Shown here piece by piece: positions 1 through 16,138 of a DNA stretch of 21,661 bases. Under the pieces are notes generated by a model. The model had not been told where the DNA came from and searched no databases. It saw nothing but the letters and a program-made list of their open reading frames with translations. Every line of letters begins with the position of its first letter. Positions within the stretch are counted from its first letter, which is position 1. The DNA comes from a virus. The stretch covers positions 1 through 21,661 of the IMG/VR virus record IMGVR_UViG_3300009104_000136, one strand, 5' to 3'. Both the position numbers and the translations under genes were made by a program.

Positions 1-3000
1 ATTCCTGTTTCCATTTCTATTTCATATTTTTTTCTAAGTTCTTCTGGTGTAAAGAATCCACCTCTTCTATTATAACTTGGTAGATTATAAATTTTATCTT
101 TATATTCTACGCCTATAGTTTTAGCAGTTACAGGATTACCTTGCTTATCTTGTAGAACTAAACCTAATCTAATTGTATCTAAATGATACTGTTGATTAAA
201 GGTTAAAGGAGTAGTACCTTCTGCATATTTTTTTCTACCACCTATTAAACCACCACCATACTTCTTAGTCCTAGGGGTTATATCAACATCTAAACCGGCA
301 ATAACATGGAAAGGTTGACCAAGATTCTGACTTAGTTTACGAGACATCTTAGCTAAATCTTCTGGAGTAGGTGTTGGTAGTCTTTTAATATCCTTAAGAC
401 CACGCCAACTAATAGGAGCATATTCTATTGGAATGTAATATTTTACTAGTTCTTCAATTAAATCATCAATATCCCCCACGTGTGGGTCGAGATACTTAAT
501 ATTATCCTCATAAGGTAAGCGATATAACATATCTATCTGAGCTTGAAAAGCTTGTTTAATTCTATCATTCCATTCTAATATTCCATTATGACCCCACTCC
601 ATTCTAGTAGCTGTAAGATCAGCTAATAATTCTGTATCAGAACGAGTATCATTATTTCTAAAACGATAAGCTTTTACCATATCAGATGCCATAAACTTAT
701 TAGCATTAATATTATTTTCATTTACATAAGAAAATAAATCATGGAATGCAAGCACTTCAGGAAACTTTTCTTTAACATTATCCTCTTTCTCAAAAGCTTG
801 TCTAACAGCTTTCACACGATTTTGATAGTGTGTTACGTAATCAAGAGCTTTATTATAAATAGCATCACTATAAGCTTCTTGTACTTTATTTATATTAACA
901 GGATTAAGCATTGGATTATCTGCAACTACTTTTAAATGTTTAGCACGTTTTATAGCTAAAGCAATATTTTCTACCTGACCCTGTGCTTCTTTTAATAATA
1001 TACTATTAGCTGTACCAAAATCAAATGATTTAGCTAACTCAGAATTTTCTAACATCCCTATTCTTTCTTCTAATTTAAATAATCTCGCTGTTTCTAATAA
1101 ATCTCTTTGAGGACCTTCAACAATTGTAGCGTGTTCTTTATGAATCTTTTCTATTTCATCAACAGCTCTTAAAAAAGAACGCTTAGATATTTCACTTTTT
1201 AATCCACTCTGTTTTATAATTTCTCTAAATCCTTTAGAAACTATACCACCTGTCATAAATTTCTTTCTAGTTAAAGGGTTATTAACTAACTGTGGTTCAT
1301 TAGTACTAACAGCAAATTGAGTAGGATCAAATATAATATAAGCGTACCCTCTTTTCTTTCCAACTATACTTCCTACTTTAGTAAGTGCTAAACGAGGAGC
1401 ATGTTGTATTTTATATTGAATACCATCAAAACCCATCATTTCTAATAGCTTTATAATATTACGGCTTTGTAAATTTCTAGATAAGGTATATAAGGCAGTT
1501 TCTGAACCTTCCGGTAAATCTTTATTCTTAGGATTTTTTATAAATGCATCGATTATATCATCATAAACTTGATTCTCAGCCACCGCCTGTTTTAATAGAG
1601 AACGAATTTCTTTATCGCTTACTTTAGCCTGTGTAAGTAAAGATTTACTAACTGTTTCATCGTTAATAAATGCATCTAATACTTCTTGTGGACCCCAAGG
1701 ATATAAATCTTTTTCTAACTTTAAAGGGTTTATCATTCTTATATAACCATCAAGTCGAGTAGTTTGTGGTACATCTAAACCATTTACTTGTAAATAATTT
1801 TGTAATGATTCAAATGATACACCAATTTCTTTATGTACTAAATCTTCTGTAGAACGTCCAAGTCTTGCATTAATATTTTCTAATCTTTCAAAATTTCCTT
1901 TAGCTTCATCTCGTAATATCTTTCTTAATCTTTCAAAATTACTAATAATTCTACGTGCTGGAAGTAATGATTCTTCCATCCCTTCTTTAATATCCCGATC
2001 CATCTTTAAAGCTTTTAATTCAGCTTCAACTTCCATCATTGGTCCGGATGTTCTAAGGTCTTCTTCAGTAACTATTTTCATGCCCGGACCCATCTCTACA
2101 GCTTCTCCTTCTATTCCTGTTACTGCAGATGCTGGAAATTCTTCACTTCCTAAATCAGTATCCTGACGATAATCATACGGTTTATATTCTTCAGCCAAGT
2201 CTTCAATCTTAGCAACCTGTCCTTCCGGTGCTGATGTCTCTCTAGGAAATAATCCTAGATCAGCTTTAACTTCTTCAGTTATTTCTATTTCATTTTCATG
2301 TCGCTTAATAAAATTAGTTAATCCTTGCTGATCATCTATATCAAAATATTTTTCTATCTGTTGATTATATCTATCAGGTTTAAATACTACTCTAAATCCT
2401 ACAGGTTTACTAGTTATAGCTGGACCTTTATCAATCTCTGCATGATATTTAGGATCAAGTAAATATTTAGTGTTCTTAGTTTTTAAATCACTGTAAGCTG
2501 TAACATAACCACTTTTTTGTTTTACTATTCCCTTTACTCCTCCAATTTCTACATAATTTTTAGGTATGTTACTTCCCTGTTTTAAAGGTATGAATACTTC
2601 ACTAATAGAATTTTTTACATTAACTATACTATCATTAAAACCTAACCATCTATTATAATCTTTATCTTCTTTCCGCATTAATTCTCGCAATGCAACTTCG
2701 TCTAATTCAGGATTATCCTTACGTAATTTTTTATAGTTAGCTCTAATCTTAGGTAGAATTTTACTTCTTCTTGTTTCTAAATTTTCTAAAAATTTATTTA
2801 AGCGTTTAACTTTAGCTTCAGGATTGATTAACTCTTCCATATCAATAATAGCTTTCTGAATTCCCTTTGCAGTAGGCATGCCTGTAATAAACTCAGGTTT
2901 AGTCTGTCCTTTCTTAATTACCTGCCCAGTAAAATATGGACTTTCAGAATCATAACGATCAATCATTCTTGCTCTGAAAAGTAACTCACTAGAGTTGACA

Positions 3001-6000
3001 AAATTATTATCATTAATAGCAGTTTGTTGTTTATAAATTTCACGAATTTTAGCTAGAGCTTGATCATAATCAACCTTATGCTTACGCATATAATTTTGTA
3101 TAATGCTTTCAAAAAACTCTGGATTCTGTAGAGCATACTTATCATTAGTAAAATCTTTCCAATTTTGTAATGAAGGAAAAGCTCTTGCATTACTATCATT
3201 TAACCACATACCCTCTGCAAATATTCTATCTCCTGTATGTATCCCTATATTAGTAGAACGATCTAAAGCATCACTAACTGAATGCTGTAAATCACTTCTA
3301 CTAATATATGATACAGGGTGTTTCACTACTGATGAATTTAAAAAACTTTGAGTATCTTCAGTACCCAATAATTTCATAGTACTACGTGGTTGAATAATAT
3401 CAGTAGATAATTTATTACCAATTAATCTATCTAAATCAGGGTCTTTATCTATACTATTTATTAATAAATCTAAATCAGTTTCCTTTTTAAATAAAGATTG
3501 AATAATAGGTTTAACTAATCTACCAAAAGCAAAGCGTTGTCTATCGTCTGTATCTTGAACTATAAAGCCTGCAACATCACTAAAAGATACACCGCCTGCT
3601 CCGGGTATTTTTCTATCTTCTGGTTCTGTTTTAGCATTTCTAATATCTACTTCACCACCTCTTTTAAACCTACCACGAGCCTGTTCTTCTGAAATAATAA
3701 CATCAGGAAATATAGGGTCCTCTGCTTCTTTCTTAGTTCCTCTTGCCCATCTTCTTAAATCAGTTCTAGTATCAACTGGTAAGGCAGAATATCCGGGCAT
3801 ATTAGTTACAGCTAATTCTGGTATTCCCTTTCTATATTGAATTGTATCTACAACATCTTGCATTAATGGTCCAGTAGGTGTTTTTAGAAATATAGCTAAA
3901 CCACCACCACCAACTTGTGCATTCTCATAACCTCTTAATGCAAAATCCAGTGGACCTAATCCGCCCCAACGCTGTACAGCTTTCATAGTTACCCACGCTT
4001 CCTTACTTACAAACTCTGGTCTATTAGGATCACCTTCTTCCTCATAATCATAGGGATTACGTAAGTAGTTAGTTAATCCGGCAACCCCTGTCATGATTGT
4101 ACCTACAGCAGCCAGTTTAGGTAAATTCTGACTTGGATTTTTAGTAAGCTGATATATGCCCTCTCTTAAAATTGTATTATTAAAAGCTGTCGGATAACCT
4201 AAGAATTGAAATAACATTTGTCCTGCTGGATGAGAAAATATCATAGGCTTATTAGCTGAAACGGCTGACGGATTTAAAATAATTCCTCTTGAAAATCTTG
4301 CAGCTCCTCTACTAAAATAATTTTCAAAAAAAGTATCTAGTTGTTCTACTCCACTTTCTCGTTTAAAAACTTGTGGTGAACCTCTTTCTATCCAAGCTAA
4401 TCCTTCTTGAATAGGTATACCTAAATCGTGTAATTCTTCTGTTATCCTATTTTGTAAACGATCAAGTTTAATCTCAGGAATATCATCGTACTTAGTTTTT
4501 AATCCATTCTTTATTTTATATAAAGTTTGTAAATTATCTTTTATAATCGTTTTACCTATAGTATAAGCTCCGCCTTCAACCGAATGTGTCCAAGGAGATA
4601 GAATATTAGCATTAAAAAATCCTCTTTGTAGTTTCTGAGCCAGCTTACTTTGCATTCTTTCACCGCCAGATAAACCTTGTATTCTTTCAAATACATTCAT
4701 CTCATGAGCTAAACCAACACCATGTCTTTCTTGATACCATAATCTTTCTAAAGGACTATCAGGAATTAATAGGCGTTTACCCTGTTCTTCACTTAAACCT
4801 AGACGTTCTAAAAAAGCAGTTCTACCAGCATTATATGATTTACGACCTATATCATTAATACCATAACCTATAGCTTCTCCCATATCCTTCATCCCTTTAC
4901 CCCATTGATTAAAAGGAATCCTAGCAAAAGGAATAAAAGCTTCTGTAACACTTGATACAGTAGCTAAAGGTAAGTGAGCTGTTTGTTGACTTAAACGTAA
5001 CCAATCAGATGTACCTTGCATAACTCTAGAGCCTGTCCAAGTTTCCATAGTTGGCATGTCTATACCTAATACATAATCATATAATTGCATTAAAGCTTGT
5101 TCATCGGCAGCCTTTAAAGGAAAATCTTGATCGTCTAATTCTTGTTTTATCTTGGGTAAAATTTGATTTTTGAAAAATTCTTTATTACCTCTTAAAGTAG
5201 GATGTTTAGTTCTAGCCATTGAATGAGCTAGATTATTAGAATAATTAAGTAATACTTCAGTTATATCTTCTTCTAAGAAAGGAGCTTTTCTATCGTATGG
5301 TATTTTATTAAATACTCTAGGATTTAAATTACCAACACCTTTTTTAGTTCTTTCAATACCATCATCAAAAAACATTTGATCTTTGGTCAACATATTATCT
5401 ACAATATGTCTAGCTTTATCTCGTTCAGTAGCAAAGGGAGCAGTAATATCAAAATCATCTATAGTTTTAGCATCAAAAATTTCTTGTAATTCTCTTTGAG
5501 CTTCATTATAACTTAAATTTCTTTTAGCTTGCTGAACTCTCCCTGTAGATATATCAATAACTTCTTCAGTAGCATTTCTCATATATCTTTCTACTTGAAC
5601 TGGTGTAGGAGAAATATCTGCATAACCAAACTCTATTAAGTTATCTTCAAATTCAGTCCTATTATCTTTTAGATAGCGTTTATTATACATATGCGGAAAA
5701 TAATTTTCTCGCCAACTAGTCCTTTTTGCAATACCTGCATTTATAGCATCCTTAAAATGATTATTTAAAGCTTGACGAATTGCCGTAGCTCCTAGTAAAT
5801 CTTCTCCTGTTAGTTCAGGAGCATTTGGTCCTCCTTCTAACCACAATCTAATTCTATCATTACGTGCTTTAGACCAACCAACTTGCTTCATTCCGTCTAT
5901 AGGAAACTGCATTTCAGCTACATATTTACTTCTTTGTTGATGTAAAGTTTCATGGAAAGCAAAAGGTCTATATCGTCCTGCTAAACTTTCATACTTACTC

Positions 6001-7262
6001 CATTTAGTTAAAGGTTTATCCCAATCTTCTCTAACATCATCTAAAAATTTAAACATAGTTTCTGAACGTAAACCATATTCTCTTATCTGTGTAGTGGGCT
6101 TTCCTTGAGTATGAGCCATTAACCAATCACCATAATTAGCTGTAAATTTAGGAGATACTCTTTCAAATATACGACCAAATAAATTTTTATTAATTACTTG
6201 TTCTTCAAAATCTGCATCTTCAACACCTTCCATAGATATTCTAACTGGTGTATCAAACAAATCTAAATTTCTACCTTCAAGTTTTAAATCAGAATCTATA
6301 CCTTCCCATTCAGACTTCCTTCTAATTCGTTCTAATTCTGAAACTTCTAAATTATTAGATGATCTTATAATTCTATCTTCATCTGAAAATCTATCAATAA
6401 CACTTCTAGTTTGATTACTACGTGTAAAGAAGCGGGATATACCATATCCTATACCACCACCTAATAGACCTGTAAAGCCCCCAACTAAAGCTGTTTGTCC
6501 TAAATCAAAACCAGAATTTTGTAACCCTACATTAATATCTATATTTTGGAGAGCTGCGTCATGTCCTGTTCCCCAAACAAAACCTATACCAGCTTCTACT
6601 TTACCGATTCGCATAGCTTGTTGATGAGTAGTTAATTTTTTTAATCCTTCAGTTGCTGCTTTACCTGCTGCAAACCTAGCTCCAATACTACCACCACCTG
6701 TAACAAAACCAGCTAAGATAGCTAACATCATTGTAGGATCACTAACAAAATCTCCCCCTATATCAGCTATCGCTCTTACATAGTGTTCCATACCAGAACC
6801 TTTAAGGCTTGCTTTATCAAAGCGTTGACTTAAATATTCATAATCTTTTTTCTGACGATCTGACCAGTTTTTAGAAGCTAAAGCTATACTTAAAGCACTA
6901 TCTCCTCCGGGAAAACTAGTTAATGAATAATCGCTATCCCTTAAATATTCAAACATATCTTCAGGATCAATATCAGTTTCACCGATTGATTCTAAGAATC
7001 TCTCAGCAATTCGTACATATTCGGGATCGTTTTCTAAATCTAGGAGGGTTTCATTGATAGGAGATAAAGAACTAAAAGTTCTGGTAGGTTTTATAGCTGT
7101 GATATCGTAGCCAAGATTTAACTTAGTATCATCAGTATCGGGGATAGGGGCTAGTAAAGCTTCACCTAAATGGGTAGGAATAAGTCCAGTATTCTCTTCT
7201 TCCTCTTCTTGTTTAGGAGGAGAAGTTAATAGATCATATAAATCTACAGTATTAATTGACAT
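1..7262 (-). CDS. Giant internal virion protein candidate, at least 2420 aa (3' end outside window)
   Basis: I read the frame codon by codon from the ATG at 7262-7260 to the left edge and found no stop, so 2420 codons are present and the C-terminus is missing. Residues about 20-25 are an acidic run. Gly-rich hydrophobic segments lie near residues 165-190 and 255-275. A segment with the motif ENYFPHMYN is near residue 520, and another hydrophobic stretch (LAAVGTIMTGVAGLTNYL) is near 1045-1070, followed by GGLGPLDFALRGYENAQVGG. Residues about 1800-1990 resemble the ADP-ribosyltransferase-like domain of phage polyvalent proteins (separate entry). The gene starts 12 bases after the 622-aa gene, with a weak AAGAG ribosome site, the poorest in the last block. 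Last position in a structural operon, great length and Gly-rich hydrophobic segments suggest a T7 gp16-like DNA-ejection protein. I see no lytic transglycosylase motif. A polyvalent or antirestriction protein carried in the virion is the main alternative. Confidence 0.75.
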   Translation of the reverse strand, partial: MSINTVDLYDLLTSPPKQEEEEENTGLIPTHLGEALLAPIPDTDDTKLNLGYDITAIKPTRTFSSLSPINETLLDLENDPEYVRIAERFLESIGETDIDPEDMFEYLRDSDYSLTSFPGGDSALSIALASKNWSDRQKKDYEYLSQRFDKASLKGSGMEHYVRAIADIGGDFVSDPTMMLAILAGFVTGGGSIGARFAAGKAATEGLKKLTTHQQAMRIGKVEAGIGFVWGTGHDAALQNIDINVGLQNSGFDLGQTALVGGFTGLLGGGIGYGISRFFTRSNQTRSVIDRFSDEDRIIRSSNNLEVSELERIRRKSEWEGIDSDLKLEGRNLDLFDTPVRISMEGVEDADFEEQVINKNLFGRIFERVSPKFTANYGDWLMAHTQGKPTTQIREYGLRSETMFKFLDDVREDWDKPLTKWSKYESLAGRYRPFAFHETLHQQRSKYVAEMQFPIDGMKQVGWSKARNDRIRLWLEGGPNAPELTGEDLLGATAIRQALNNHFKDAINAGIAKRTSWRENYFPHMYNKRYLKDNRTEFEDNLIEFGYADISPTPVQVERYMRNATEEVIDISTGRVQQAKRNLSYNEAQRELQEIFDAKTIDDFDITAPFATERDKARHIVDNMLTKDQMFFDDGIERTKKGVGNLNPRVFNKIPYDRKAPFLEEDITEVLLNYSNNLAHSMARTKHPTLRGNKEFFKNQILPKIKQELDDQDFPLKAADEQALMQLYDYVLGIDMPTMETWTGSRVMQGTSDWLRLSQQTAHLPLATVSSVTEAFIPFARIPFNQWGKGMKDMGEAIGYGINDIGRKSYNAGRTAFLERLGLSEEQGKRLLIPDSPLERLWYQERHGVGLAHEMNVFERIQGLSGGERMQSKLAQKLQRGFFNANILSPWTHSVEGGAYTIGKTIIKDNLQTLYKIKNGLKTKYDDIPEIKLDRLQNRITEELHDLGIPIQEGLAWIERGSPQVFKRESGVEQLDTFFENYFSRGAARFSRGIILNPSAVSANKPMIFSHPAGQMLFQFLGYPTAFNNTILREGIYQLTKNPSQNLPKLAAVGTIMTGVAGLTNYLRNPYDYEEEGDPNRPEFVSKEAWVTMKAVQRWGGLGPLDFALRGYENAQVGGGGLAIFLKTPTGPLMQDVVDTIQYRKGIPELAVTNMPGYSALPVDTRTDLRRWARGTKKEAEDPIFPDVIISEEQARGRFKRGGEVDIRNAKTEPEDRKIPGAGGVSFSDVAGFIVQDTDDRQRFAFGRLVKPIIQSLFKKETDLDLLINSIDKDPDLDRLIGNKLSTDIIQPRSTMKLLGTEDTQSFLNSSVVKHPVSYISRSDLQHSVSDALDRSTNIGIHTGDRIFAEGMWLNDSNARAFPSLQNWKDFTNDKYALQNPEFFESIIQNYMRKHKVDYDQALAKIREIYKQQTAINDNNFVNSSELLFRARMIDRYDSESPYFTGQVIKKGQTKPEFITGMPTAKGIQKAIIDMEELINPEAKVKRLNKFLENLETRRSKILPKIRANYKKLRKDNPELDEVALRELMRKEDKDYNRWLGFNDSIVNVKNSISEVFIPLKQGSNIPKNYVEIGGVKGIVKQKSGYVTAYSDLKTKNTKYLLDPKYHAEIDKGPAITSKPVGFRVVFKPDRYNQQIEKYFDIDDQQGLTNFIKRHENEIEITEEVKADLGLFPRETSAPEGQVAKIEDLAEEYKPYDYRQDTDLGSEEFPASAVTGIEGEAVEMGPGMKIVTEEDLRTSGPMMEVEAELKALKMDRDIKEGMEESLLPARRIISNFERLRKILRDEAKGNFERLENINARLGRSTEDLVHKEIGVSFESLQNYLQVNGLDVPQTTRLDGYIRMINPLKLEKDLYPWGPQEVLDAFINDETVSKSLLTQAKVSDKEIRSLLKQAVAENQVYDDIIDAFIKNPKNKDLPEGSETALYTLSRNLQSRNIIKLLEMMGFDGIQYKIQHAPRLALTKVGSIVGKKRGYAYIIFDPTQFAVSTNEPQLVNNPLTRKKFMTGGIVSKGFREIIKQSGLKSEISKRSFLRAVDEIEKIHKEHATIVEGPQRDLLETARLFKLEERIGMLENSELAKSFDFGTANSILLKEAQGQVENIALAIKRAKHLKVVADNPMLNPVNINKVQEAYSDAIYNKALDYVTHYQNRVKAVRQAFEKEDNVKEKFPEVLAFHDLFSYVNENNINANKFMASDMVKAYRFRNNDTRSDTELLADLTATRMEWGHNGILEWNDRIKQAFQAQIDMLYRLPYEDNIKYLDPHVGDIDDLIEELVKYYIPIEYAPISWRGLKDIKRLPTPTPEDLAKMSRKLSQNLGQPFHVIAGLDVDITPRTKKYGGGLIGGRKKYAEGTTPLTFNQQYHLDTIRLGLVLQDKQGNPVTAKTIGVEYKDKIYNLPSYNRRGGFFTPEELRKKYEIEMETG
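1290..1860 (-). other. ADP-ribosyltransferase-like segment inside the giant protein
   Basis: Within the giant frame, residues about 1800-1990 contain, in order, HKEIGVSFESL, GYIRMINPLKLEKDLYPWG, MMGFDGIQYK and GYAYIIFDPTQF. From memory of the family, the ADP-ribosyltransferase domains of phage polyvalent proteins have the order [G-x-H-F near the start] - [KNPL-type strand followed by D-L-x-W] - [GYDG-I-x-Y] - [Y-I-V-F-D-P-x-Q]. The last three elements match well. The first matches poorly, since an S stands where H is usual. I infer an ART-like fold. Catalytic activity cannot be judged from this, and the domain may be a degenerate structural module. It is followed by KKFMTGGIVSKG, a Gly-Gly turn motif. 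Confidence 0.5.
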
Positions 7263-7274
7263 AAGTAGCTCTTG

Positions 7275-9143
7275 TTAAGAATCTAAAAATTCTTTAATTT
7301 CTTGTTTAGATAAATCTGGGTCTAATCCTAAAAGAGTTAATGCTTCTTTTATTTGTTTAGGTCTATACTTAACACCTTTAGTATAGTTTATTAATCTCTT
7401 ACGAGCATTTACTTGAGGAGCTTCTTCAACTGCTCTTAAAAATGGTTTTACAAGTATTTCCTCTCCACCTACTCCAGTATGAGCTGTTCTGGGTTTATCT
7501 CTATAACCTAATGAGCTTAATTCCTCATCAATATTTGGCGGTGGAGGAGGGGGTGGAGGTGGTGGAGGTGGAGGTGGGGGTGGAGGTGAACCAGTATCTC
7601 CTCCAATATCTTCTTTAGTATCTCCTTTTTCTTTTAGTTGAGGATTAATATAAGTTAAAAAAGACTGTTGTAATTCTTCTATTGTCTGCTCTGACATATT
7701 TCTAACTCTTGCCATCTTAGGTAATGTAAGTGTAACATACGTTTTTGCCATTTCTATTTTATCTTTTAAAGGTGCTGATTTAAATATATCTGTTGCGTTA
7801 AACATAATAGTATTTTTATCTGTTCCTCTACTAATTTCAAAAGGTGGTAATATTAATCTATTAGCTGCATTTGTATTCCAAGAATAATTTTTTAAACGTG
7901 TTCGTCCTATCATTCCATAAGTTTCCTGTATAGGATGTTCAGTTACAAAATGTTTTAATCCAAAAGCTGCTATCTCAGTTATACCTTCATTACGATTACC
8001 TTTAAATAATGAAAGATTAAAACGGTTAGTTTCTTCTCTAAGTTCTGCTGTAGTTGGTATATAATCACCAGCATGTTTACTTCTTAAGCTAAGACTAGCA
8101 AAAGTCCTCGATAAAGATTCACCAAATTCCGGATTCTCTTCCGCAATATTACGTAAATTAACTGACCATTTTGCCCATTCCTTGCCCATAAAAGTAGGAA
8201 TACCGTTTTCTATTAGTCCTGATTTTGCCCACGCTGTATCTAAAGTTTCTAGTAATTCCTCTGATATCTTAAATTGTGTAGGATTACGAGAAATTTGATC
8301 TATTATATTGATAACCCAAGGTCCAGCTTCCTCATCAGAAATTGTAGAAGAAGGACTTTTTATTAGAGCTATAGAAATTTTATTTAAATTTTCTTGTGTA
8401 GGAACAAAAGGTAAATCAGGTTGTATAGTATCCATTAAAGTTTTAAACTTAGGTAACTTATCTAGAGTTATATCATCTAATAATCTAAGTGAATTGTCTG
8501 TTTGACCCTCTCCTTTTCTCCAATTATTTATTCGTTTAACTCCTGCTTTCATTGAATTTAATAATTTACCTTGATCTTTAATACTATTTTTTGCCTGTTC
8601 AAGAGGTTCTTTATATAATTTCATAAGTCTTGGTAAATCCATATTATAGAGTTTATCCATCGTTAAACCTTCATCTAAATCCTGTAAAACTTCTAAAGAA
8701 GTTCCAACACTAGTAGTTAAGTACTTATTAAAATCATCTAGTATACTTTCGGCATATGCTCTTTGAAAAAGTGGTGACTTTCCTTCACCCAATATACCGC
8801 TTTGTATTAAACTATTTATTTTACTTTCTCTAGAGCCTGCTCCATCAACAATATTTTGTAGTGTTTTAGTATCTGTTAGTTTATTAAAAAGAGCCTGTGC
8901 CTTTGCTTCTGCAGACGCATTCCATGAATCTATTTCTTTAGTACGTTCTGTTGCTAAGTTTCTAGGAATACTAACTGCATTCATAAGAATACCATCCTTA
9001 CCTAACCAAGCGTTCCAGTCTTGTTCTTCTTTCCAATTTTTAAGACTGTCTTTCTCTCTCTTTTTTTGTCCTTGCCGAAGCAAGCTGAACATCTCACTCA
9101 TGTCCATGTTCATATTTACATTATCCCAAGGATTCTCTGCCAT
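7275..9143 (-). CDS. Virion protein with 17-residue poly-proline tract
   Basis: A 622-residue protein of unknown family, largely predicted helical and soluble, with no signal peptide or membrane segment that I can see. The N-terminus is rich in Met, Asp and Asn (NMNMDMSEMFSLL) and is followed by charged helices. Residues 520-536 are 17 consecutive prolines, preceded by a Gly/Asp/Ser-rich linker. An 86-residue C-terminal tail ends in a short helical region (SKQEIKEFLDS). The ATG overlaps the stop of the 208-aa gene as TAATG, with AAGGAG eight bases upstream, so translation is probably coupled. The place between a small conserved protein and the giant protein, and the length, recall T7 gp15 next to gp16, but I see no sequence motif that proves this. 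The poly-proline run would stall ribosomes without EF-P and probably acts as a stiff spacer between two domains. Confidence 0.8.
   Translation of the reverse strand: MAENPWDNVNMNMDMSEMFSLLRQGQKKREKDSLKNWKEEQDWNAWLGKDGILMNAVSIPRNLATERTKEIDSWNASAEAKAQALFNKLTDTKTLQNIVDGAGSRESKINSLIQSGILGEGKSPLFQRAYAESILDDFNKYLTTSVGTSLEVLQDLDEGLTMDKLYNMDLPRLMKLYKEPLEQAKNSIKDQGKLLNSMKAGVKRINNWRKGEGQTDNSLRLLDDITLDKLPKFKTLMDTIQPDLPFVPTQENLNKISIALIKSPSSTISDEEAGPWVINIIDQISRNPTQFKISEELLETLDTAWAKSGLIENGIPTFMGKEWAKWSVNLRNIAEENPEFGESLSRTFASLSLRSKHAGDYIPTTAELREETNRFNLSLFKGNRNEGITEIAAFGLKHFVTEHPIQETYGMIGRTRLKNYSWNTNAANRLILPPFEISRGTDKNTIMFNATDIFKSAPLKDKIEMAKTYVTLTLPKMARVRNMSEQTIEELQQSFLTYINPQLKEKGDTKEDIGGDTGSPPPPPPPPPPPPPPPPPNIDEELSSLGYRDKPRTAHTGVGGEEILVKPFLRAVEEAPQVNARKRLINYTKGVKYRPKQIKEALTLLGLDPDLSKQEIKEFLDS
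7536..7586 (-). repeat. Proline-codon tract (17 codons)
   Basis: Seventeen consecutive CCN codons on the minus strand, in all four forms CCA, CCT, CCC and CCG. The tract encodes residues 520-536 of the 622-aa protein. The + strand is correspondingly G-rich (GGAGGAGGGGGTGGAGG) and could form G-quadruplexes. Confidence 0.95.
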
Positions 9144-9769
9144 TATGCTACTCCTTCGTTTCTAGCTAGTAAACTACTTTGATTACCGCCTAGTCGTTGC
9201 TGTAATAAACTTTCCTGTTCATCTGTTTTATTAAAATCATCTAAAGCATCTTGAATAGTTGGTGGTAATTCTGTTCGTGGCTTTTCAATATCAACTTTTA
9301 AAGCTTCGTCAAATAAATTACTTCGTAAAGCTGCATTACGACTATTTAAATTTTGTAATCTAGTATCATCCGTTTCTGCTAAATCTGAATCTTCCTCATT
9401 ACTTTCTATTATAGGATCAATTCCTTCTTTTTCTGCTATACCTAAGAATACATAGGTTAGTGGTTCTATCATTTGTAATGCCATATCAGGATTCCACTTA
9501 CCCATATAAATACCTGCTTTAGTAAACATATTTACTAAAGAACGAATAGGGATACCATCAGACATAGCTACAACCATTTCAATATAAGTATTAGGTTCTA
9601 ATATATCTGCAACTGATCTATCTACAGCTTCTCTAAAATTAGTAATTTCAGGAGGACGCTCCCAAGGTCTAGGTTCATCTGGACTATTCGTTAACGATTG
9701 TCCGGGGATAGGTCGATTAAAAGGATTAACAGTTTTGACTGCATCTTCATCTATAAAATTATTAGACAT
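9143..9769 (-). CDS. Conserved marine-phage virion-associated protein, 208 aa
   Basis: A 208-residue protein whose N-terminal part contains RPIPGQSLTNSPDEPRPWE, followed by RPPEITNFREAVD. A PGQSLTNxP...PWE.PP opening followed by a helical domain (here EMVVAMSDGIPIRSLVNMF, then KAGIYMGKWNPDMALQMIE) is one I recall from many cyanophage and pelagiphage proteins of unknown function encoded among structural genes. The C-terminal third is acidic, polar and probably disordered. It overlaps the stop of the 376-aa gene by eight bases and has AAGGAGA eight bases before its ATG. Its stop overlaps the next start. In size and place it could match T7 gp14, but that is inference only. Confidence 0.8.
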   Translation of the reverse strand: MSNNFIDEDAVKTVNPFNRPIPGQSLTNSPDEPRPWERPPEITNFREAVDRSVADILEPNTYIEMVVAMSDGIPIRSLVNMFTKAGIYMGKWNPDMALQMIEPLTYVFLGIAEKEGIDPIIESNEEDSDLAETDDTRLQNLNSRNAALRSNLFDEALKVDIEKPRTELPPTIQDALDDFNKTDEQESLLQQRLGGNQSSLLARNEGVA

Positions 9770-10892
9770 TATAATAATCTCCTTGTGATTGTCCTAAGTT
9801 GTATTCAAATGTCGGAATACTTCCAATTGTTTTAAACCTAGGTGGATTATATCTAGGAATATAATATTTCCAATCATCCATATTAGCCGAAAATATACCC
9901 CCATGAAGAGGTAGATTCATTAAATTAGCCATTTGGTTAGGATCAGTTAAATTTGTAAATTGTAGATCACCACCTTTAAATATTTCTTTAGTAGCTTTAT
10001 TAATTTGTTCCTTATGTGTATTTGGACTAGAGGTAAAGAAACTCTCAGGTGATACAAAATTAAAACCACCTAAATTTTCTCTATCGACATTCGTATCAGA
10101 TTCTGATATAGCCATATGTGCAGCTATGTTTAAACTATTATTTGCCTGTCTTTGTCTGTATTCTGCTAATTCTTCTTCTGTCATTCCAGCTATCAATTCC
10201 TCTGTAGCAGCAGTAACACCAGCAGTACCTGTAACAGCACTAGTTACTTTCTCCACAGTAGTAAGAGATTTTTGAGAAGCTGTAGCATCTTTAGCTGCTT
10301 TAGCTGCCTTATCTAAATTATCTTGATATTTCTCTATATTACTTCTATGAACTTTAACTGTTTCTCCAGCTTTCCATTCAGTTTTAGGATTCATTTTTAC
10401 GATATCTTCGGCACTCATTCCTGTTTGTTCTGCTAGTAATTCTATAGTATCGCCTTCCCCTAAAGTAATATTTCTAGTAAAAGGATCACCTTCTAAGCCA
10501 GTCATACTTCTAAGTTGAGAGTGTGCTTTCTCATAAAGATTTGCTAATCTGTCACCTAAACCCATATCTTTTCCACCGGGTATAAGATTTAAACTTTCTT
10601 TAATTCCACTAGTAATAGAACTATAAACTTTACCCGTTGCATCTCCTGCCCATTTAATAGTTTTAGCCATACCATCAAAAACTTTATTTCCAAAAAATGT
10701 TTTATCTGCAAAAAATTTCCAATTCGCATTCATAAACCAATGTGATATATAGGGAGCTACAATTGCCATGCCTAAATATCCTAAAGGTCCTAACTTACCA
10801 ACAAATTTACCAATTTTAGAAAAAGCCTTTCTAATACCCTTTCCTAATTTTTTTATAGGTTTTAAAATCTTTTTAAATACTTTCTTAAACAT
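9762..10892 (-). CDS. Virion protein with cationic amphipathic N-terminus and LysM-like segment
   Basis: A 376-residue protein. Residues 1-35 are very rich in Lys and hydrophobic residues (MFKKVFKKILKPIKKLGKGI onwards) and resemble an amphipathic membrane-active helix. A short hydrophobic Gly-rich stretch follows at about 35-53 (LGPLGYLGMAIVAPYIS). Residues about 141-182 look like a LysM domain: NITLGEGDTIELLAEQTGMS, then EDIVKMNP and an AGETVKV end. LysM domains bind N-acetylglucosamine-containing glycans such as peptidoglycan. An Ala/Lys-rich helix follows (about 186-240), and the C-terminal part is rich in Asn, Pro and Tyr and ends in a Gly/Gln/Tyr segment. No catalytic hydrolase domain is visible. 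It begins two bases after the 905-aa stop, and its ribosome site GGAGGAGG is made from the final Gly codons of that gene. A role in crossing the envelope during ejection is plausible but inferred. Confidence 0.8.
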   Translation of the reverse strand: MFKKVFKKILKPIKKLGKGIRKAFSKIGKFVGKLGPLGYLGMAIVAPYISHWFMNANWKFFADKTFFGNKVFDGMAKTIKWAGDATGKVYSSITSGIKESLNLIPGGKDMGLGDRLANLYEKAHSQLRSMTGLEGDPFTRNITLGEGDTIELLAEQTGMSAEDIVKMNPKTEWKAGETVKVHRSNIEKYQDNLDKAAKAAKDATASQKSLTTVEKVTSAVTGTAGVTAATEELIAGMTEEELAEYRQRQANNSLNIAAHMAISESDTNVDRENLGGFNFVSPESFFTSSPNTHKEQINKATKEIFKGGDLQFTNLTDPNQMANLMNLPLHGGIFSANMDDWKYYIPRYNPPRFKTIGSIPTFEYNLGQSQGDYYNV

Positions 10893-10894
10893 TA

Positions 10895-13612
10895 CTATCC
10901 TCCTCCAAGGAAATTATCCAATATACTAGTTATGGAACTTAAATTACTAGACCAGCCTTTCCCTTCATAAGCTGCTGAATCATTACCAAGAGCAGCTACC
11001 ATCAAAGATGCTTTACGTGATAAATCATTATCTGAAACTTTAAAAGCAAAATCCATTTCATCTCTAGTTTCTTGCCACAAATTCGATAATTGTTGTGTAC
11101 TTAATTGAAAAGCATTTTGTGCATTCTGTTGATTAATAGAGTTCTGGGCAGCCGTATTAATTGTATTGGCTTGTCTACGCCATTGTACATTAGATTGTTC
11201 AATAGCTTGAGCATTCTGCACATTAAACTGTTCCTGTTGAAAATTAATTTGTTCATTAAACTGATCTATCTGTGCTGCTAATTGACTATTAGCTAATGAA
11301 ACTTGTGTACCTAACTGTGCCCTTTGAGCTTCAGCAGCATTCTGTTGGGTTGCATTAAATTGTTGCATTGCATCATTTCTAGCAGCATTATTAACATCTA
11401 CCTGCGTTTGTAGATTTGCCATAAATTGATTAGTCTGATTTACAGATGTTGAATTAAACTGTCTTGCAGCATTTTCAGCAGCTTGATCAGATAACATTCG
11501 TTGTTGATCTAATTGAGCTTGTAATACAACACCCTGCTGTTCATTATTAAGATTTGCCATATCCATCTGTAAGAAGTTACGTGCATTCTCTATTGATCTC
11601 TTAGTATTCTGATCAGCAGTAGCCATATCTAACTGTGCCATTATTGTAGCTTGTTGCATCGCTGCTTGCTGTTTCTGTGAAAAATCTTGTAGAGTAGTTG
11701 TCTGCATAAATTTACTATTAGCTAACTCAACTTGTTGAGCTGTAGTAAATTTCGTCATATCCATATTAGCTGTTACTGATGCATGTTGCATAGCACGTTG
11801 CTGATCTACATTTAATTGAGCAACACCTAATTCTTGAGCCAGTTTAGCATTTAATGTATTAACTTCTAAACGAGATTGTAAATTTGCCAACTCAACTTTT
11901 TCGTCTGCCGAGAGTTGTTCTGAAGCTGCTTGGTTCTTTGAAGTTAAGTTTGCTAATCTCATCTGTTGATCATTAGATAAATTAGCTAATTCCATTTGTT
12001 GTGCAAATGCTGTATTCTTAGCTAAGAAATCAGCAGCAGTCTGGAACTGAGTTAATCTACTTTGTTGAGCTTGCTGGGCTGTAGTTAAAGTAGCCTGTTG
12101 CATAAACTCACCTTGTTGTAAAGCAACTTGTTGAGCCATAACCGCAGTTTGTCTAGCTGCTTCTTGACTATTAGCAAGATTTTGTAATCTTAATTGTTGT
12201 CCATTCTGAGTTTCAGCTAACTGAGCTTGTTGTTCATTTGATAAATTTTGAGTAGCTCTTTGTTGTATTGCTCTAGCATTTTCCTGTGCAATACTAATAC
12301 CATTTTGAATAATAGCATTAAATAAAGCATCTCGTCCAACTGTAGAAACATCTAAACCTCTATCAGCCATTATTTGATTAACTTGATCTACTGCAGGTTT
12401 AGCCCACGTTGGAACTTCACCAGCTTCCAAGCCACCTAGTAATGCTTCTAACTGAGCAGACACTAAAGCTTCTGGTGGTAAGGCAGCAGTTGCAGCCTGT
12501 ACCGTAGTAGTTTGATTATCTAACTGTGCTATAAAAGTTGTAGGATCATCTAATATAGCTGCACTAACATCGGAAGGTAATTCAGCTACGAAGTTTAATA
12601 AATCCTGTGCAGTTTGTGTAGCTGATAAACCTCGTGACGATCTTTCAGAAGCTGTTAAGAAAGTAGGTACACCTTGTATCTGTCTTTCATTTCCTTGAGC
12701 TTGTGTTCCTGTTAATATAGCTCTCGATTGCTGTTCAGCTTGTGGCGTTTGATTTACAAGACCACCAGTACCTGTTACTTGTGTAGCAAAAGCACCAGCA
12801 CTTAAAGCTCCTTCAACATTTGTTGCTTTAGCTGCATTCATTTGCTGTTCTGTTGGAGCAGTAACAGCAGTTGCTCTTTCTCTTTGTTGTATAGCTCCTA
12901 TTTGATCTACTTGTTGAGAGACAGCTCCCTGTGCTGCAGGACCAACAGCAGCTCTTGCAGCCTGTGCAGAATCATAAGTTTGTGCTGTAATTGGTTCACG
13001 CTGCCCAATACGTTCCGCAGGACTAGCAGTAAATACATCTCTTCTAGCAGCTTGAGCAGAAGGACCACCCACCTGCCCATACTGTTCTTGCATTTGTTTA
13101 GTGTCAGCTTCTAGTTCTTCATCCCTGACCATTTCCCAGCGTCCACTTGGTTTATCTCTATACCAGTCAGCTCCTATCTCTTGATCATCTCCTATTCTAA
13201 AAGGTCCTTTAGTTCCCGGAGGACCGTAAGGTTGTATTTCATGTGGAACCCAAACTCTTTTATATCCTGCTTTAACAGCCGGAGGAAGTTTAGCTGCTTC
13301 CGGTACTTTTCCTTCTAAAGCTCTTTTTGATACTGCATCATAATCAGCAATACGTCCTGCTCTTTGTCCTAATTGTTCCTTACGAACTTCTGGGGTTATA
13401 GGTCCTTTATCTGCATCAGTTACTCTCCCCGGATATGGAACAGTACTTGGTACAGGTCCAGATGCTGTACTTCCATCACTAGCACGGTGTCCAGCTTCAT
13501 TTGGATTATGTGGAATCCAACTACTTGATTCACGTTCATAGTTGTGACTACCCCTATGATACTTTGCTCTATCCTGTGTACCCTTAGTATATCTTCTTCT
13601 TCTTCTTGCCAT
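10895..13612 (-). CDS. Large Gln/Ala/Asn-rich protein with long hendecad repeat
   Basis: A 905-residue protein. The N-terminus is strongly basic (MARRRRRYTKG). Residues 30-330 are Pro-, Gly- and Gln-rich and probably poorly ordered. A compact helical region at about 330-449 contains WAKPAVDQVNQIMADRGL and STVGRDALFNAIIQNGISIA, a segment I associate with structural proteins of Mediterranean metagenomic phages. Residues 450-845 form an unbroken 11-residue repeat (separate entry). The last 60 residues return to ordinary composition and end in LGGG. There is no signal peptide or transmembrane segment. The start has GAGGTGA about eight bases upstream and lies directly after the 80-aa gene. A fibrous, tape-measure-like or ejection-channel role fits the repeat, and an internal scaffold of the tail is equally possible. 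Function is unknown. Confidence 0.82.
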   Translation of the reverse strand: MARRRRRYTKGTQDRAKYHRGSHNYERESSSWIPHNPNEAGHRASDGSTASGPVPSTVPYPGRVTDADKGPITPEVRKEQLGQRAGRIADYDAVSKRALEGKVPEAAKLPPAVKAGYKRVWVPHEIQPYGPPGTKGPFRIGDDQEIGADWYRDKPSGRWEMVRDEELEADTKQMQEQYGQVGGPSAQAARRDVFTASPAERIGQREPITAQTYDSAQAARAAVGPAAQGAVSQQVDQIGAIQQRERATAVTAPTEQQMNAAKATNVEGALSAGAFATQVTGTGGLVNQTPQAEQQSRAILTGTQAQGNERQIQGVPTFLTASERSSRGLSATQTAQDLLNFVAELPSDVSAAILDDPTTFIAQLDNQTTTVQAATAALPPEALVSAQLEALLGGLEAGEVPTWAKPAVDQVNQIMADRGLDVSTVGRDALFNAIIQNGISIAQENARAIQQRATQNLSNEQQAQLAETQNGQQLRLQNLANSQEAARQTAVMAQQVALQQGEFMQQATLTTAQQAQQSRLTQFQTAADFLAKNTAFAQQMELANLSNDQQMRLANLTSKNQAASEQLSADEKVELANLQSRLEVNTLNAKLAQELGVAQLNVDQQRAMQHASVTANMDMTKFTTAQQVELANSKFMQTTTLQDFSQKQQAAMQQATIMAQLDMATADQNTKRSIENARNFLQMDMANLNNEQQGVVLQAQLDQQRMLSDQAAENAARQFNSTSVNQTNQFMANLQTQVDVNNAARNDAMQQFNATQQNAAEAQRAQLGTQVSLANSQLAAQIDQFNEQINFQQEQFNVQNAQAIEQSNVQWRRQANTINTAAQNSINQQNAQNAFQLSTQQLSNLWQETRDEMDFAFKVSDNDLSRKASLMVAALGNDSAAYEGKGWSSNLSSITSILDNFLGGG
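11078..12265 (-). repeat. 36 tandem 11-residue (33-bp) repeats
   Basis: Dividing the 905-aa protein into blocks of 11 from residue 450 gives 36 consecutive units without an insertion or deletion, to residue 845. Typical units are QQLRLQNLANS, QQVALQQGEFM, QQMELANLSND, QQVELANSKFM, QQRMLSDQAAE and TQVSLANSQLA. Positions 1-2 favour Gln or Asn, position 5 is often Leu, Met or Val, and position 8 is often Leu, Ala or Phe. Units later in the array (such as FQQEQFNVQNA) are richer in Asn, Gln and Phe. An 11-residue period is the hallmark of hendecad, slightly right-handed coiled coils. At helical rise it would span about 59 nm. Confidence 0.8.
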
Positions 13613-13613
13613 A

Positions 13614-13856
13614 TTACTTCACCTCGAAAAGCTTATCAAGCTTCTCTTCAATCTTGTTAAGCGTTGTAAAAACTCTTTCCATATCTCCTTCGAGTTCTAC
13701 CTTTGTTACATAGTCTTTTGCCATTTCTTCTCTAGTTTTATTTAATAGTATATCTAATCTTTTATTCTCTGAGGTGTTTCCTCTAATCGTATAAAGCAAC
13801 GGAGCTACTACTAAAGTTAATAAAATATTCCACATTATATATGGTGATAATTCCAT
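13614..13856 (-). CDS. Small membrane protein with coiled coil (holin/spanin-like candidate)
   Basis: An 80-residue protein with one predicted transmembrane helix at about 7-25 (IMWNILLTLVVAPLLYTI) followed by a charged heptad-like helix (LDILLNKTREEM, then VELEGDMERVFTTLNKIEEK) to the C-terminus. This one-helix-plus-coiled-coil plan is common in small phage proteins annotated as holins, spanin-like or simply hypothetical. No endolysin gene lies next to it in this window, which weakens a lysis assignment. The start follows the stop of the 217-aa gene directly (TAAATG) with AAGGAGA five bases upstream. It could also be a membrane-bound accessory of virion assembly. Confidence 0.7.
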   Translation of the reverse strand: MELSPYIMWNILLTLVVAPLLYTIRGNTSENKRLDILLNKTREEMAKDYVTKVELEGDMERVFTTLNKIEEKLDKLFEVK

Positions 13857-14510
13857 TTAGTTCTCCTTAACTAATTCTTCTGTCTTTTCTATTTTAAAAC
13901 CTTTAAACCATGCTGGTAAGCCTAGAAAGGGTCTTGTATCAAACTTATTTTCTTCTGCTTCCTCTCCATTTACATCATTATAATGTAAAAATACTTGACC
14001 ACAGTTCTCTCCTTCAAAAGGTTCTCGCCAATGTTCTAATTCACAACCACGATACATAACCATATCTCCAGCTTCCATTAAAATAGATGTTCCTTTTTTT
14101 CCTGTATCACCAGTTGAATCTAAAAATAATTCCCAAGGATCACCTCCTAAGTTTAAAGTACCTGATATTTCACAACTATACCGATCTTTATGTCTTTTTA
14201 AAATATCTCCTTTTTTATAGATACGAGCATAACTATAAGTAGGATAAAGTTTAAAACCACTTTCTGCTTCCATTCGTGGTAATAGTTTTTCTAATAATGT
14301 CTCCATTACTATATCACTATAATGGCTATATGTTTCTGGAATTTGTGAATCATTCCACACGCCCCAATCTTCATTAAACTGAGAAATATATAGACTATCA
14401 TAAAACATTCTTGCTACTTTTCGTTTAGTTAAAAAATAATCATAACAAAAGTTAGCCATTTCTTCTGATATAGCTCTTTTAACTATTAAATACTTATCGT
14501 CTTTAAACAT
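13857..14510 (-). CDS. 2-oxoglutarate/Fe(II)-dependent oxygenase (second copy), 217 aa
   Basis: The 217-residue protein carries the facial triad of the superfamily: H107-x-D109 in LKRHKDRYS and a distal H160 in CELEHWREPF, spaced as expected for a double-stranded beta-helix core. YARIYKKGDIL before the triad and GQVFLHYND after it fit the strands of the core. Members use 2-oxoglutarate and O2 to hydroxylate or demethylate a substrate. The substrate here is unknown. It overlaps the end of the first oxygenase gene by eight bases, with AGGA about eight bases upstream. The two proteins differ strongly in sequence, so they are not a recent duplication. Related genes are common in tail-fibre regions of cyanophages, where their substrate is also not established. 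Confidence 0.85.
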   Translation of the reverse strand: MFKDDKYLIVKRAISEEMANFCYDYFLTKRKVARMFYDSLYISQFNEDWGVWNDSQIPETYSHYSDIVMETLLEKLLPRMEAESGFKLYPTYSYARIYKKGDILKRHKDRYSCEISGTLNLGGDPWELFLDSTGDTGKKGTSILMEAGDMVMYRGCELEHWREPFEGENCGQVFLHYNDVNGEEAEENKFDTRPFLGLPAWFKGFKIEKTEELVKEN

Positions 14511-15126
14511 AAGGTTGTCCTAAACTCCAACATACTAAAGAATGTCTTATCCCTCTAGTAACTGGTTTTACTCTATGCCACACAAACGAAGGAAATATAA
14601 TTAAACTTCCTCTTGGTCTAACTTCTTCACAAATAGAAGGTTGTTTATTTCCGTCATTATCATGGAATCCAAACTCTACATCTCCACCTTCGTATTCTTC
14701 TGGCTCACTTAATGATAAAATTAAACTTAACTTTCTTATTTTACCATTTGTGTTTGGATCATCAGGTTTATCATAAGGAGTTGGATTACTATCACAATGC
14801 CAATCATAAAACTGTCCTTCTTTATATTCAGTATATTGACAAGATTCTGACCAATCCCATTGAAAATTCCAATTAGCTCTTTCATTTGCCAGTTGAATAA
14901 AAGGTTGTAGTTCTCTATATAACCAATATCCTGAAAGCCACACAACATCTGATTTTCTTTTTTTCTCTATACTTTCTAATTCTTCTTCTGAAGGAGGATT
15001 ATTCTTTACATGTCCTCCTGTTAATCCCTTCTCTTTAGAAAAGGATTCTCCTGTTTTAACTATTTCATCACAAATACTTAAAGGAATAGCTTTAGTAAAA
15101 TACCAATAATAATCCTGTAAATTCAT
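14503..15126 (-). CDS. 2-oxoglutarate/Fe(II)-dependent oxygenase, prolyl-hydroxylase-like, about 207 aa
   Basis: From the ATG at 15126 the protein has 207 residues. It shows H110-x-D112 in FYDWHCDSN, distal H184 in FVWHRVKPV and R194 in GIRHSLVCW, the Fe(II)-binding triad plus the arginine that binds 2-oxoglutarate. EGGDVEFGF and PRGSLIIFPS are typical core strands of the prolyl 4-hydroxylase-like PKHD group. A frame extension upstream to 15150 begins with TTG inside the preceding gene. The ATG giving MNLQDYYWYF lies eight bases after that gene's stop and is the better start, although its ribosome site is weak. The substrate is unknown. A peptide or glycan in the virion or cell surface is a possibility suggested only by position among fibre genes. 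Confidence 0.87.
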   Translation of the reverse strand: MNLQDYYWYFTKAIPLSICDEIVKTGESFSKEKGLTGGHVKNNPPSEEELESIEKKRKSDVVWLSGYWLYRELQPFIQLANERANWNFQWDWSESCQYTEYKEGQFYDWHCDSNPTPYDKPDDPNTNGKIRKLSLILSLSEPEEYEGGDVEFGFHDNDGNKQPSICEEVRPRGSLIIFPSFVWHRVKPVTRGIRHSLVCWSLGQPYV

Positions 15127-15133
15127 AAAAAAA

Positions 15134-16138
15134 TTATCGCCATTCCCCAATTACTTTTTTATGAAATACTTGTTTATAATCCCAAACTCCACTAGCGTTA
15201 ACATTCGGTTCACTAACAATAACTATACCTGATCCACCTGCAGCACCAGTTCCGTCATTATCGGCTGGGTGTTCAGGAGTGGCTTGATCAGCACAAACTC
15301 CACCACCTCCACCACCTGTGTTAGCAACACCAGTTCCTAAAGTTGGTGATGGTGAGCCTTGGTGGTTTGCATCCCCAGCTCCACCTTTTTGAGCAGGGAA
15401 AATACTTCCTCCACCTGTAGTATGACCTCCTAAATATCCTTTATTAATTTTTCCTTCGGTTGAAGCAAGTTCGTGTGTAAATCTATAACCAGCTCCACCA
15501 CCACCAGAATACCAAGTTTTTGAGCCAGAAACAGTAGACATCTTAGCTAATCCACCTTGACCACCTATAGCGTTCCAATCGTTACCAAGTCCATCTGGAG
15601 TTTCATTACCACCAGTACCACCGGCTCCACCGCCTCCACCACCAGAGTAATAACTACTACCATTGTATCTTCCATGACCTCCATCATTTCCTTCAGGTGG
15701 ATCAAAACTACCTGAATTACCTGTTCCACCACCGGGATGTGCTGGGTGATTACCACCTGAACCACCACCGGAACCTCCATTAAGTGCTTCGCTATCTCCT
15801 CCAACAGCTAGACCACCAGCCCCACCACCACCAGATGATGTAATAGGAGTAGCAGAACCAAAAACTGAATCAGAACCAGAAGAACCTCTATTATTTGAAT
15901 CTGGAGCCCCTGCTCCACCTGCTCCAACAGTTACTGGAACAGGAGAAGTTGGAATTGGGTGAGCCGGAAGTTCTCTAAATCCACCTCCACCCCCACCACC
16001 ATGACTAGAACCACCACCACCAGCAATTACTAATAAATGACATTCGCTTGACATAGGATCGGCTGCAAAAGTTCCATTAGCAGTAAAGGTCGTTATCTTA
16101 GGTGTAATTGTAAAGTTTTTTCCTACTAGTCTAGCCAT
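15134..16138 (-). CDS. Glycine-rich tail adhesin-like protein B, about 334 aa
   Basis: The protein begins MARLVGKNFTITPKITTFTA and contains a strand-rich segment ending LLVIAGGGGSS, then about 230 residues of Gly-rich motifs (GGGGGGGF, GAGGAGAP, GGGGGAGGTGG). It closes with GGSGIVIVSEPNVN, GVWDYKQVFHKKVIGEWR and a stop. This plan, a VVAGGGG opening, a glycine-rich core and a IVIxEP...GVW end, is common in marine phage tail proteins. A start at 16147 is possible, but GGAG would then be one base from it. The ATG at 16138 forms TAATG with the upstream stop and has GGAG ten bases away, so I chose it. It is paralogous to the adjacent upstream glycine-rich protein. A receptor-binding tip role is inferred. 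Confidence 0.8.
   Translation of the reverse strand: MARLVGKNFTITPKITTFTANGTFAADPMSSECHLLVIAGGGGSSHGGGGGGGFRELPAHPIPTSPVPVTVGAGGAGAPDSNNRGSSGSDSVFGSATPITSSGGGGAGGLAVGGDSEALNGGSGGGSGGNHPAHPGGGTGNSGSFDPPEGNDGGHGRYNGSSYYSGGGGGGAGGTGGNETPDGLGNDWNAIGGQGGLAKMSTVSGSKTWYSGGGGAGYRFTHELASTEGKINKGYLGGHTTGGGSIFPAQKGGAGDANHQGSPSPTLGTGVANTGGGGGGVCADQATPEHPADNDGTGAAGGSGIVIVSEPNVNASGVWDYKQVFHKKVIGEWR

What the first reader, a model, noticed from the sequence alone, without database searches (positions are those of the whole stretch)
11078..12265. Uninterrupted 36-unit hendecad (11-residue) repeat in a phage structural protein
The 905-aa protein keeps an exact 11-residue register for 396 residues with no indel, although individual units are highly diverged. 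That means register is under strong selection and the repeat is old. Hendecads produce long, slightly right-handed coiled coils, rather than the left-handed heptads usual in phage fibres. As one helix it would be about 59 nm long. This is followed directly in the operon by the LysM, 208-aa, 622-aa and giant proteins, so it could be a helical channel, a fibre or a tape-measure-like element. The hydrophobic positions are weak and Gln/Asn-rich, so assembly may depend on polar side-chain ladders.
Basis: partly seen in the sequence, partly recalled or inferred. Interest (0 to 1): 0.8.

Follow-up and report, generated by a model that had tools for sequence, protein, structure and literature searches.

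The report
Register-locked 11-residue repeat phage protein
A marine short-tailed phage carries a helical virion-type protein built of 37 back-to-back 11-residue units. Across relatives the number of units changes but only ever by whole units, and the gene sits at the head of the set of genes that short-tailed phages probably use to push their DNA through the bacterial envelope.

Summary
ORF 10895-13612(-), 905 aa, keeps an unbroken 11-residue register over residues 441-847 (37 units). It is under strong purifying selection (dN/dS 0.09) and contains no proline. A stronger test is new here: in all 84 scorable unique homologous segments, the distance between conserved domains on either side of the array falls in one class modulo 11. 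There are 11 different lengths, from 180 to 554 aa, so units come and go only whole.

There is no single hydrophobic stripe, so an ordinary hendecad coiled coil is unlikely. A hidden 22-residue super-period exists in the first two thirds. Two AlphaFold runs break the helix there at the same places; only the last ~145 residues are one helix. A 59-nm rod is therefore unproven. A classical tape measure is unlikely: isolated relatives are short-tailed (MQM1 tail 9 nm).

The gene is a conserved, unannotated component of HMO-2011-type podoviruses. It lies just upstream of genes resembling an ejection set (about 200, 600 and 1,100-2,400 aa). I read it as an internal/ejection protein that helps build the trans-envelope DNA conduit (confidence about 0.5); this is inferred, not shown. 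Its register resembles, weakly (p=0.026), the Gln-lined phiX174 H tube.

The parts
10895..13612 (-). 905-aa ORF carrying the 11-residue array
   Evidence: homologs in viral contigs and isolated phages
12653..13612 (-). N-terminal region, aa 1-320: Pro/Gly-rich, basic start, length-variable, fast-evolving (dN/dS about 1 against the nearest relative), probably disordered
12293..12652 (-). Conserved all-helical head domain, aa 321-440, ending in the RGL..S.VGRDALFNAII motif
   Evidence: AlphaFold pLDDT about 75-83 over most of it; invariant columns
11072..12292 (-). Array of 37 uninterrupted 11-residue units, aa 441-847; consensus Q-Q-[AMV]-[AEN]-L-A-N-[LA]-[QS]-N-[EA]
   Evidence: cyclic HMM, autocorrelation, modulo-11 length test
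11507..12265 (-). First tier of the array, aa 450-702: 22-residue super-period (paired 11-mers); AlphaFold predicts helix-turn alternation in aa 525-690
11078..11506 (-). Second tier, aa 703-845: plain 11-mers (QFNxxxxN type), inside one predicted continuous helix aa 690-835
10898..11071 (-). Conserved C-terminal tail, aa 848-905 (follows the WQExRD motif), amphipathic end
13614..13856 (-). 80-aa protein directly upstream, conserved neighbour (79-87 aa in most loci); weak PHROG lipoprotein match
9762..10892 (-). 376-aa protein with Lys-rich amphipathic/hydrophobic N terminus; LysM only a weak match
9143..9769 (-). 208-aa protein, gp14-like by size and place only; homologs in the same cassette of isolated podoviruses
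7275..9143 (-). 622-aa protein, gp15-like by size and place only
3..7262 (-). 2420-aa (open at contig end) giant protein: PHROG endolysin 3.8e-50, internal virion protein with endolysin domain 2.5e-6; gp16-like

Best explanation
The gene encodes an internal (ejection) protein of HMO-2011-type short-tailed phages. It is packed in the head, leaves through the portal on infection, and oligomerises through its long helical array to form or line part of the conduit that carries DNA across the Gram-negative envelope, together with the three or four proteins encoded just downstream. The array works as a modular helical rod or tube segment. Eleven residues are exactly three alpha-helical turns, so adding or removing whole units changes length without rotating the contact faces, which explains the modulo-11 rule. 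Shown here: the array, the modulo-11 rule, purifying selection, predicted helicity, and synteny with a probable ejection cassette in short-tailed phages. Inferred: virion location, oligomer, conduit role.
For: Synteny: in every locus with enough flanking sequence the gene is followed by a ~70-520-aa gene (absent in HMO-2011 itself), then ~165-250, ~365-820 and ~800-2400 aa genes. This matches the clustered gp14-gp15-gp16 order and sizes of T7-type ejection operons (PMC8954989). The giant gene matches 'internal virion protein with endolysin domain' in the window, and its HTVC103P counterpart carries an 'internal virion lysozyme' motif (E 1.2e-8). Relatives are short-tailed: MQM1 capsid 70.6 nm, tail 9.2 nm (PMC10410586); CRP-9/13 short tails, 70-nm heads (PMC8528129). 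Helical: no Pro or Cys in 63 aligned 462-aa arrays, high helix propensity, AlphaFold all-helix with no strand. Whole-unit length variation in 84/84. dN/dS 0.088 in the array against ~1 in the N terminus. phiX174 H-tube hendecads (PMC7354561) fit the family register, with H Q151/Q158 falling on family Gln positions 2 and 9 (permutation p 0.026), while T7 gp13-16, P22 gp7/20/16 and the TP901-1 tape measure do not score above shuffles.
Against: No proteomics places the protein in a virion. No sequence homology to T7/P22 ejection proteins or to any PDB chain. T7-type sets have three proteins; this would be an extra component. Unit number does not follow host: two SAR11 phages have arrays of anchor length 180 and 334. 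AlphaFold breaks the first tier into short helices at the same places in two overlapping runs, which argues against one long tube wall there, at least in the monomer. The H-tube register match is post hoc and modest. Only modestly hydrophobic C-terminal segments; no clear membrane helix.
Confidence: 0.5

Rival explanations
1. It is an external fibre, whisker or fibre stalk attached to the tail, with the array as a spacer rod and the variable N terminus as an exposed, fast-evolving end.
For: The gene lies directly downstream of tail-fibre-like genes (Gly_rich_2 proteins; HMO-2011 gp28-gp43 'tail fiber'). The N terminus evolves fast and varies in length. Unit-number variation fits a spacer.
Against: No receptor-binding-like beta domain or trimerisation domain; all-helical prediction. 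The variable part is Pro/Gly-rich and looks disordered. The head domain and array are among the most conserved parts, and the gene travels with the ejection-type cassette rather than with the variable fibre genes.
Confidence: 0.18
2. It is an internal core or DNA-organising/packing protein of the capsid whose helical array forms a compact solenoid or bundle (22-residue helix-turn units) around the portal or DNA and does not form a conduit.
For: 22-residue super-period, AlphaFold helix-turn alternation at pLDDT about 80 in the first tier with matching breaks in two overlapping runs. A 61-nm extended helix would barely fit a 70-nm head (PMC8528129).
Against: pTM is only 0.30-0.48 and no PDB fold matches. 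Single-unit (11-aa) length differences exist, which would flip a strict 22-residue unit. T7 ejection proteins themselves change from compact to extended, so this does not exclude the best explanation (PMC8954989).
Confidence: 0.2
3. The whole-unit rule is only a by-product of how repeats mutate (unequal recombination between units), without selection on helical register.
For: Any tandem array tends to gain or lose whole units; this was reported for 11-aa repeats in tape measure proteins (PMC3271669).
Against: Units share only 38% DNA identity and there is no DNA-level tandem array, so homologous unequal exchange is unlikely now. Ordinary small indels, common in the N-terminal half of the same protein, are absent from the array in 84 divergent segments.
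Confidence: 0.12

Closest known systems
Puniceispirillum phage HMO-2011 gp25 and its counterparts in HTVC103P/115P/033P, CRP-2/345, CHOED, MQM1, Slicky01, phiM6
   Same: Homologous by tblastn; same head domain, array and C-terminal motif; same cassette
   Different: Fewer units (anchor length 180-334 versus 389 in the window and 444 in most marine contigs); HMO-2011 gp25 has an added C-terminal domain. Nearly all annotated 'hypothetical protein' (one, in ctYwJ313, as 'huntingtin').
phiX174 DNA pilot protein H (H-tube, PDB 4JPP, PMC7354561)
   Same: Hendecad helices, Gln/Asn-rich, proposed DNA conduit; the three H hendecads fit the family register with Gln at equivalent positions
   Different: No detectable homology; only three hendecads then heptads; 17-nm tube; ssDNA tailless phage; no tandem expansion of units.
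T7 gp14/gp15/gp16 ejection proteins (PMC8954989, PMC11784390)
   Same: Cassette order and sizes of the three downstream genes; short-tailed phages; largely helical
   Different: The hendecad protein has no T7 counterpart detected; T7 gp13-16 and P22 gp7/20/16 show no match to the register profile.
Siphophage tape measure proteins with 11-aa repeats (PMC3271669; TP901-1, PMC5099701)
   Same: Tandem 11-residue helical repeats in a phage protein, variable in whole units
   Different: Markers there are Trp/Phe every 11 or 18 residues; TP901-1 repeats do not fit this register; long-tailed phages; here tails are about 9 nm and the cassette is that of a podovirus.

Membership tests
HMO-2011 gp25-like family (unnamed, unannotated) | Homologous helical head domain + 11-mer array + SNVxWRR...WQExRD C-terminal motif | tested here: met
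HMO-2011 gp25-like family (unnamed, unannotated) | Position directly upstream of the ~200 / ~500-800 / >800 aa cassette | tested here: met
T7-type ejection protein set | Gene order gp14-like, gp15-like, gp16-like in one operon, gp16-like with a wall-hydrolase relation | tested here: met
   For the downstream genes by size and order; gp16-like by PHROG. gp14/gp15 assignments rest on size and place only.
T7-type ejection protein set | Sequence homology of the 905-aa protein to gp13, gp14, gp15 or gp16 | tested here: not met
   No PHROG or Pfam match; register score not above shuffles
T7-type ejection protein set | Protein is in the virion and is ejected on infection | not testable with these tools
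   No proteomics found
phiX174 H-type DNA pilot tube | Homology to H or detection of 4JPN/4JPP by profile search | tested here: not met
phiX174 H-type DNA pilot tube | Hendecad register with amide residues on one edge of the helix | tested here: inconclusive
   Register permutation p 0.026, post hoc
Tape measure protein | Phage has a long tail whose length scales with the protein | tested here: not met
   Relatives with 9-nm or short tails (PMC10410586, PMC8528129). Window phage itself not imaged.
Canonical hendecad coiled coil (a/d/e/h core) | One hydrophobic stripe with 11/3 periodicity | tested here: not met
   First harmonic near zero, p 0.98; two opposed hydrophobic faces, not significant on 11 positions
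LysM protein (376-aa neighbour) | Pfam LysM above gathering score | tested here: not met
   13.7 bits against 20.9

The most novel reading that the evidence does not exclude
A large group of marine double-stranded-DNA podoviruses uses a Gln/Asn-lined alpha-helical tube, convergent with the phiX174 H tube but built from 15-50 interchangeable 11-residue modules, as an adjustable-length DNA conduit. Conduit length would evolve in exact three-turn (about 1.65 nm) steps.
Probability: 0.15. Interest if true: 0.82.

Novelty: new variant of a known kind. Interest (0 to 1): 0.52.

Why it matters
HMO-2011-type phages are abundant in the ocean, and how they get DNA through the envelope is unstudied. This protein is a conserved part of their morphogenesis module with no annotation in PHROGs or Pfam. 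The strict modulo-11 rule over 11 different lengths gives a clean, testable case of length evolution locked to helical register. It also offers a natural series (15 to about 50 units) for asking what sets conduit or fibre length in short-tailed phages.

Tried and rejected
Pfam, PHROGs and PDB sequence searches for the 905-aa protein: nothing. Foldseek of both models: only family members in the viral library, no significant PDB match. Tape measure reading: rejected on tail morphology of relatives. T7 gp13-16 and P22 gp7/gp20/gp16 as hidden relatives: register score not above shuffles. One-stripe coiled coil: rejected by helical-wheel harmonics. Bifaceted helix (two opposed faces, charge at 4/11, Gln at 2/9): suggestive but not significant on 11 positions (m2 p 0.15-0.18). 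Beta-solenoid (raised by the 2.2/2.75 periods and conserved Asn): not supported, no strand in either AlphaFold model. SLT transglycosylase in the window: no Pfam hit. C-terminal membrane helix: too weakly hydrophobic. Literature searches on 'hendecad + phage' and 'glutamine-rich 11-residue repeat' gave only phiX174 H and the tape-measure papers. phiM6 could not be scored by the anchor profiles; with hand-set anchors it is off by one residue.

Full report
What was checked. The finding's coordinates are residues 845-450 of a 905-aa ORF on the minus strand, 10895-13612. The window is a 21.7-kb fragment of an IMG/VR virus record.

The repeat is real. Identity autocorrelation of residues 450-845 gives z about 7 at lags 11, 22 and 44 and 6 at 33, and nothing comparable elsewhere except lag 55. 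A cyclic 11-state model finds residues 441-847 as 37.0 units without a break. The units are old: mean DNA identity between units is 38%, and no tandem array is visible at DNA level. Against the nearest relative, dN/dS is 0.09 in the array and about 1 in the first 320 residues. The array has no proline, against 6% elsewhere in the protein, and none in 63 aligned 462-residue arrays of relatives.

Length is locked to the register. Relatives were gathered from viral contigs, isolated phages and two MAGs. With position-specific anchors before the array (RGL..S motif) and after it (SNVxWRR motif), 84 unique segments could be scored. All 84 distances are 4 modulo 11: 180, 191, 202, 246, 334, 378, 389 (window), 422, 433, 444 (68 segments) and 554. 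If the 10 other lengths were independent and random, sharing one class would have odds of roughly 11^-10; shared ancestry makes that number only indicative. Two partial loci were left out, and two phages could not be scored: ctYwJ313, which with a hand-set anchor gives 356, also 4 modulo 11, and phiM6, which gives 168, off by one. Over 323 columns, 50 homologs align without a gap, whereas the N-terminal third of the same proteins is full of gaps.

A second, hidden period. Units two apart are more alike than neighbours (z 4.2 against 1.1). In family units 18-28, position 8 alternates strictly between a large hydrophobic residue and a small or polar one (p 0.0015). The last 11 units show no such alternation. 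So the first two thirds are paired 11-mers, i.e. a 22-residue repeat, and the last third is plain.

Structure. Two overlapping AlphaFold jobs give all-helix models with no strands. The first (aa 320-905) has mean pLDDT 63.6 and pTM 0.30; the second (aa 525-847 with 50 gapless homologs) has 78.4 and 0.48. Both break the helix at the same places (about 543-546, 562-568, 596-601, 615-623, 639-645, 660-667, 682-689) and then run one helix from 690 to at least 835. No solved fold matches. On a helical wheel at 98.2 degrees per residue the register has no single hydrophobic stripe. Charge sits at positions 4 and 11, hydrophobic residues on two opposite faces, and Gln at 2 and 9 facing away from the charge. 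This argues against an ordinary hendecad coiled coil. It would fit a helix with neighbours on both sides, as in a tube wall or layered bundle, but with only 11 positions the two-face pattern is not significant. A continuous 61-nm helix is therefore possible but not shown; about 22 nm of it is predicted.

Context. The gene order is conserved: ~80 aa, array protein, a variable gene (376 aa here, absent in HMO-2011), ~200 aa, ~400-800 aa, then a giant gene of ~800-2400 aa. The window's giant gene matches PHROG endolysin and, weakly, the internal virion protein with endolysin domain; its HTVC103P counterpart carries an internal virion lysozyme motif. This matches T7-type ejection operons in order and size (PMC8954989). 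Isolated relatives are short-tailed: MQM1 has a 70.6-nm capsid and a 9.2-nm tail (PMC10410586), and CRP-9/13 have short tails and 70-nm heads (PMC8528129). Hence the tape-measure idea is unlikely although 11-aa repeats of variable number are known in siphophage tape measures (PMC3271669, PMC5099701).

Comparison with phiX174 H. The H tube, a decameric 17-nm DNA conduit lined mainly by Gln, Asn and Arg, begins with three hendecads (PMC7354561, Table 1). Scored with the register profile of the present family they fit in one phase only, which puts H Q151/Q158 on family positions 2 and 9; register permutations reach this in 2.6% of cases. T7, P22 and TP901-1 proteins do not score above shuffles. 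There is no homology. This is a lead about how the protein may work, not about membership.

Verdict. A real, ancient, register-locked repeat family of HMO-2011-type podoviruses, most likely an ejection/internal protein contributing to the DNA conduit (0.5). Rivals are a compact internal core protein (0.2), an external fibre (0.18) and, for the modulo-11 rule alone, a mutational by-product (0.12). Virion location, oligomeric state and function remain untested.

Noticed in passing
window 7536-7586 (-): Run of 17 consecutive prolines (aa 520-536) in the 622-aa cassette protein.
   Followed up: no
window 9762-10892 (-): 376-aa neighbour starts with a very Lys-rich amphipathic stretch followed by a hydrophobic one; no relative found in isolated phages by tblastn although a gene sits at this place in most of them.
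   Followed up: partly
window 13857-15150 (-): Two adjacent genes of 2OG-Fe(II)-oxygenase type (one annotated 'ferrochelatase' in PHROGs) between fibre genes and the array gene; HTVC033P has a similar set at the same place.
   Followed up: no
L113:7558-8007: In Pelagibacter phage HTVC115P a gene annotated 'toxin-activating lysine-acyltransferase' lies directly behind the array gene.
   Followed up: no
L031:10960-13080: HMO-2011 gp25 carries an extra C-terminal domain (CWVAREVYG...) after a glycine-rich hydrophobic stretch, absent from the window protein.
   Followed up: no
L120:2111-4429: A contig of a Sphingobacteriales MAG encodes the longest array seen (anchor distance 554, ten units more than most marine relatives).
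   Followed up: partly
L034:10798-13389: The counterpart in ctYwJ313 is annotated 'huntingtin' in the public record, evidently a low-complexity misannotation.
   Followed up: no
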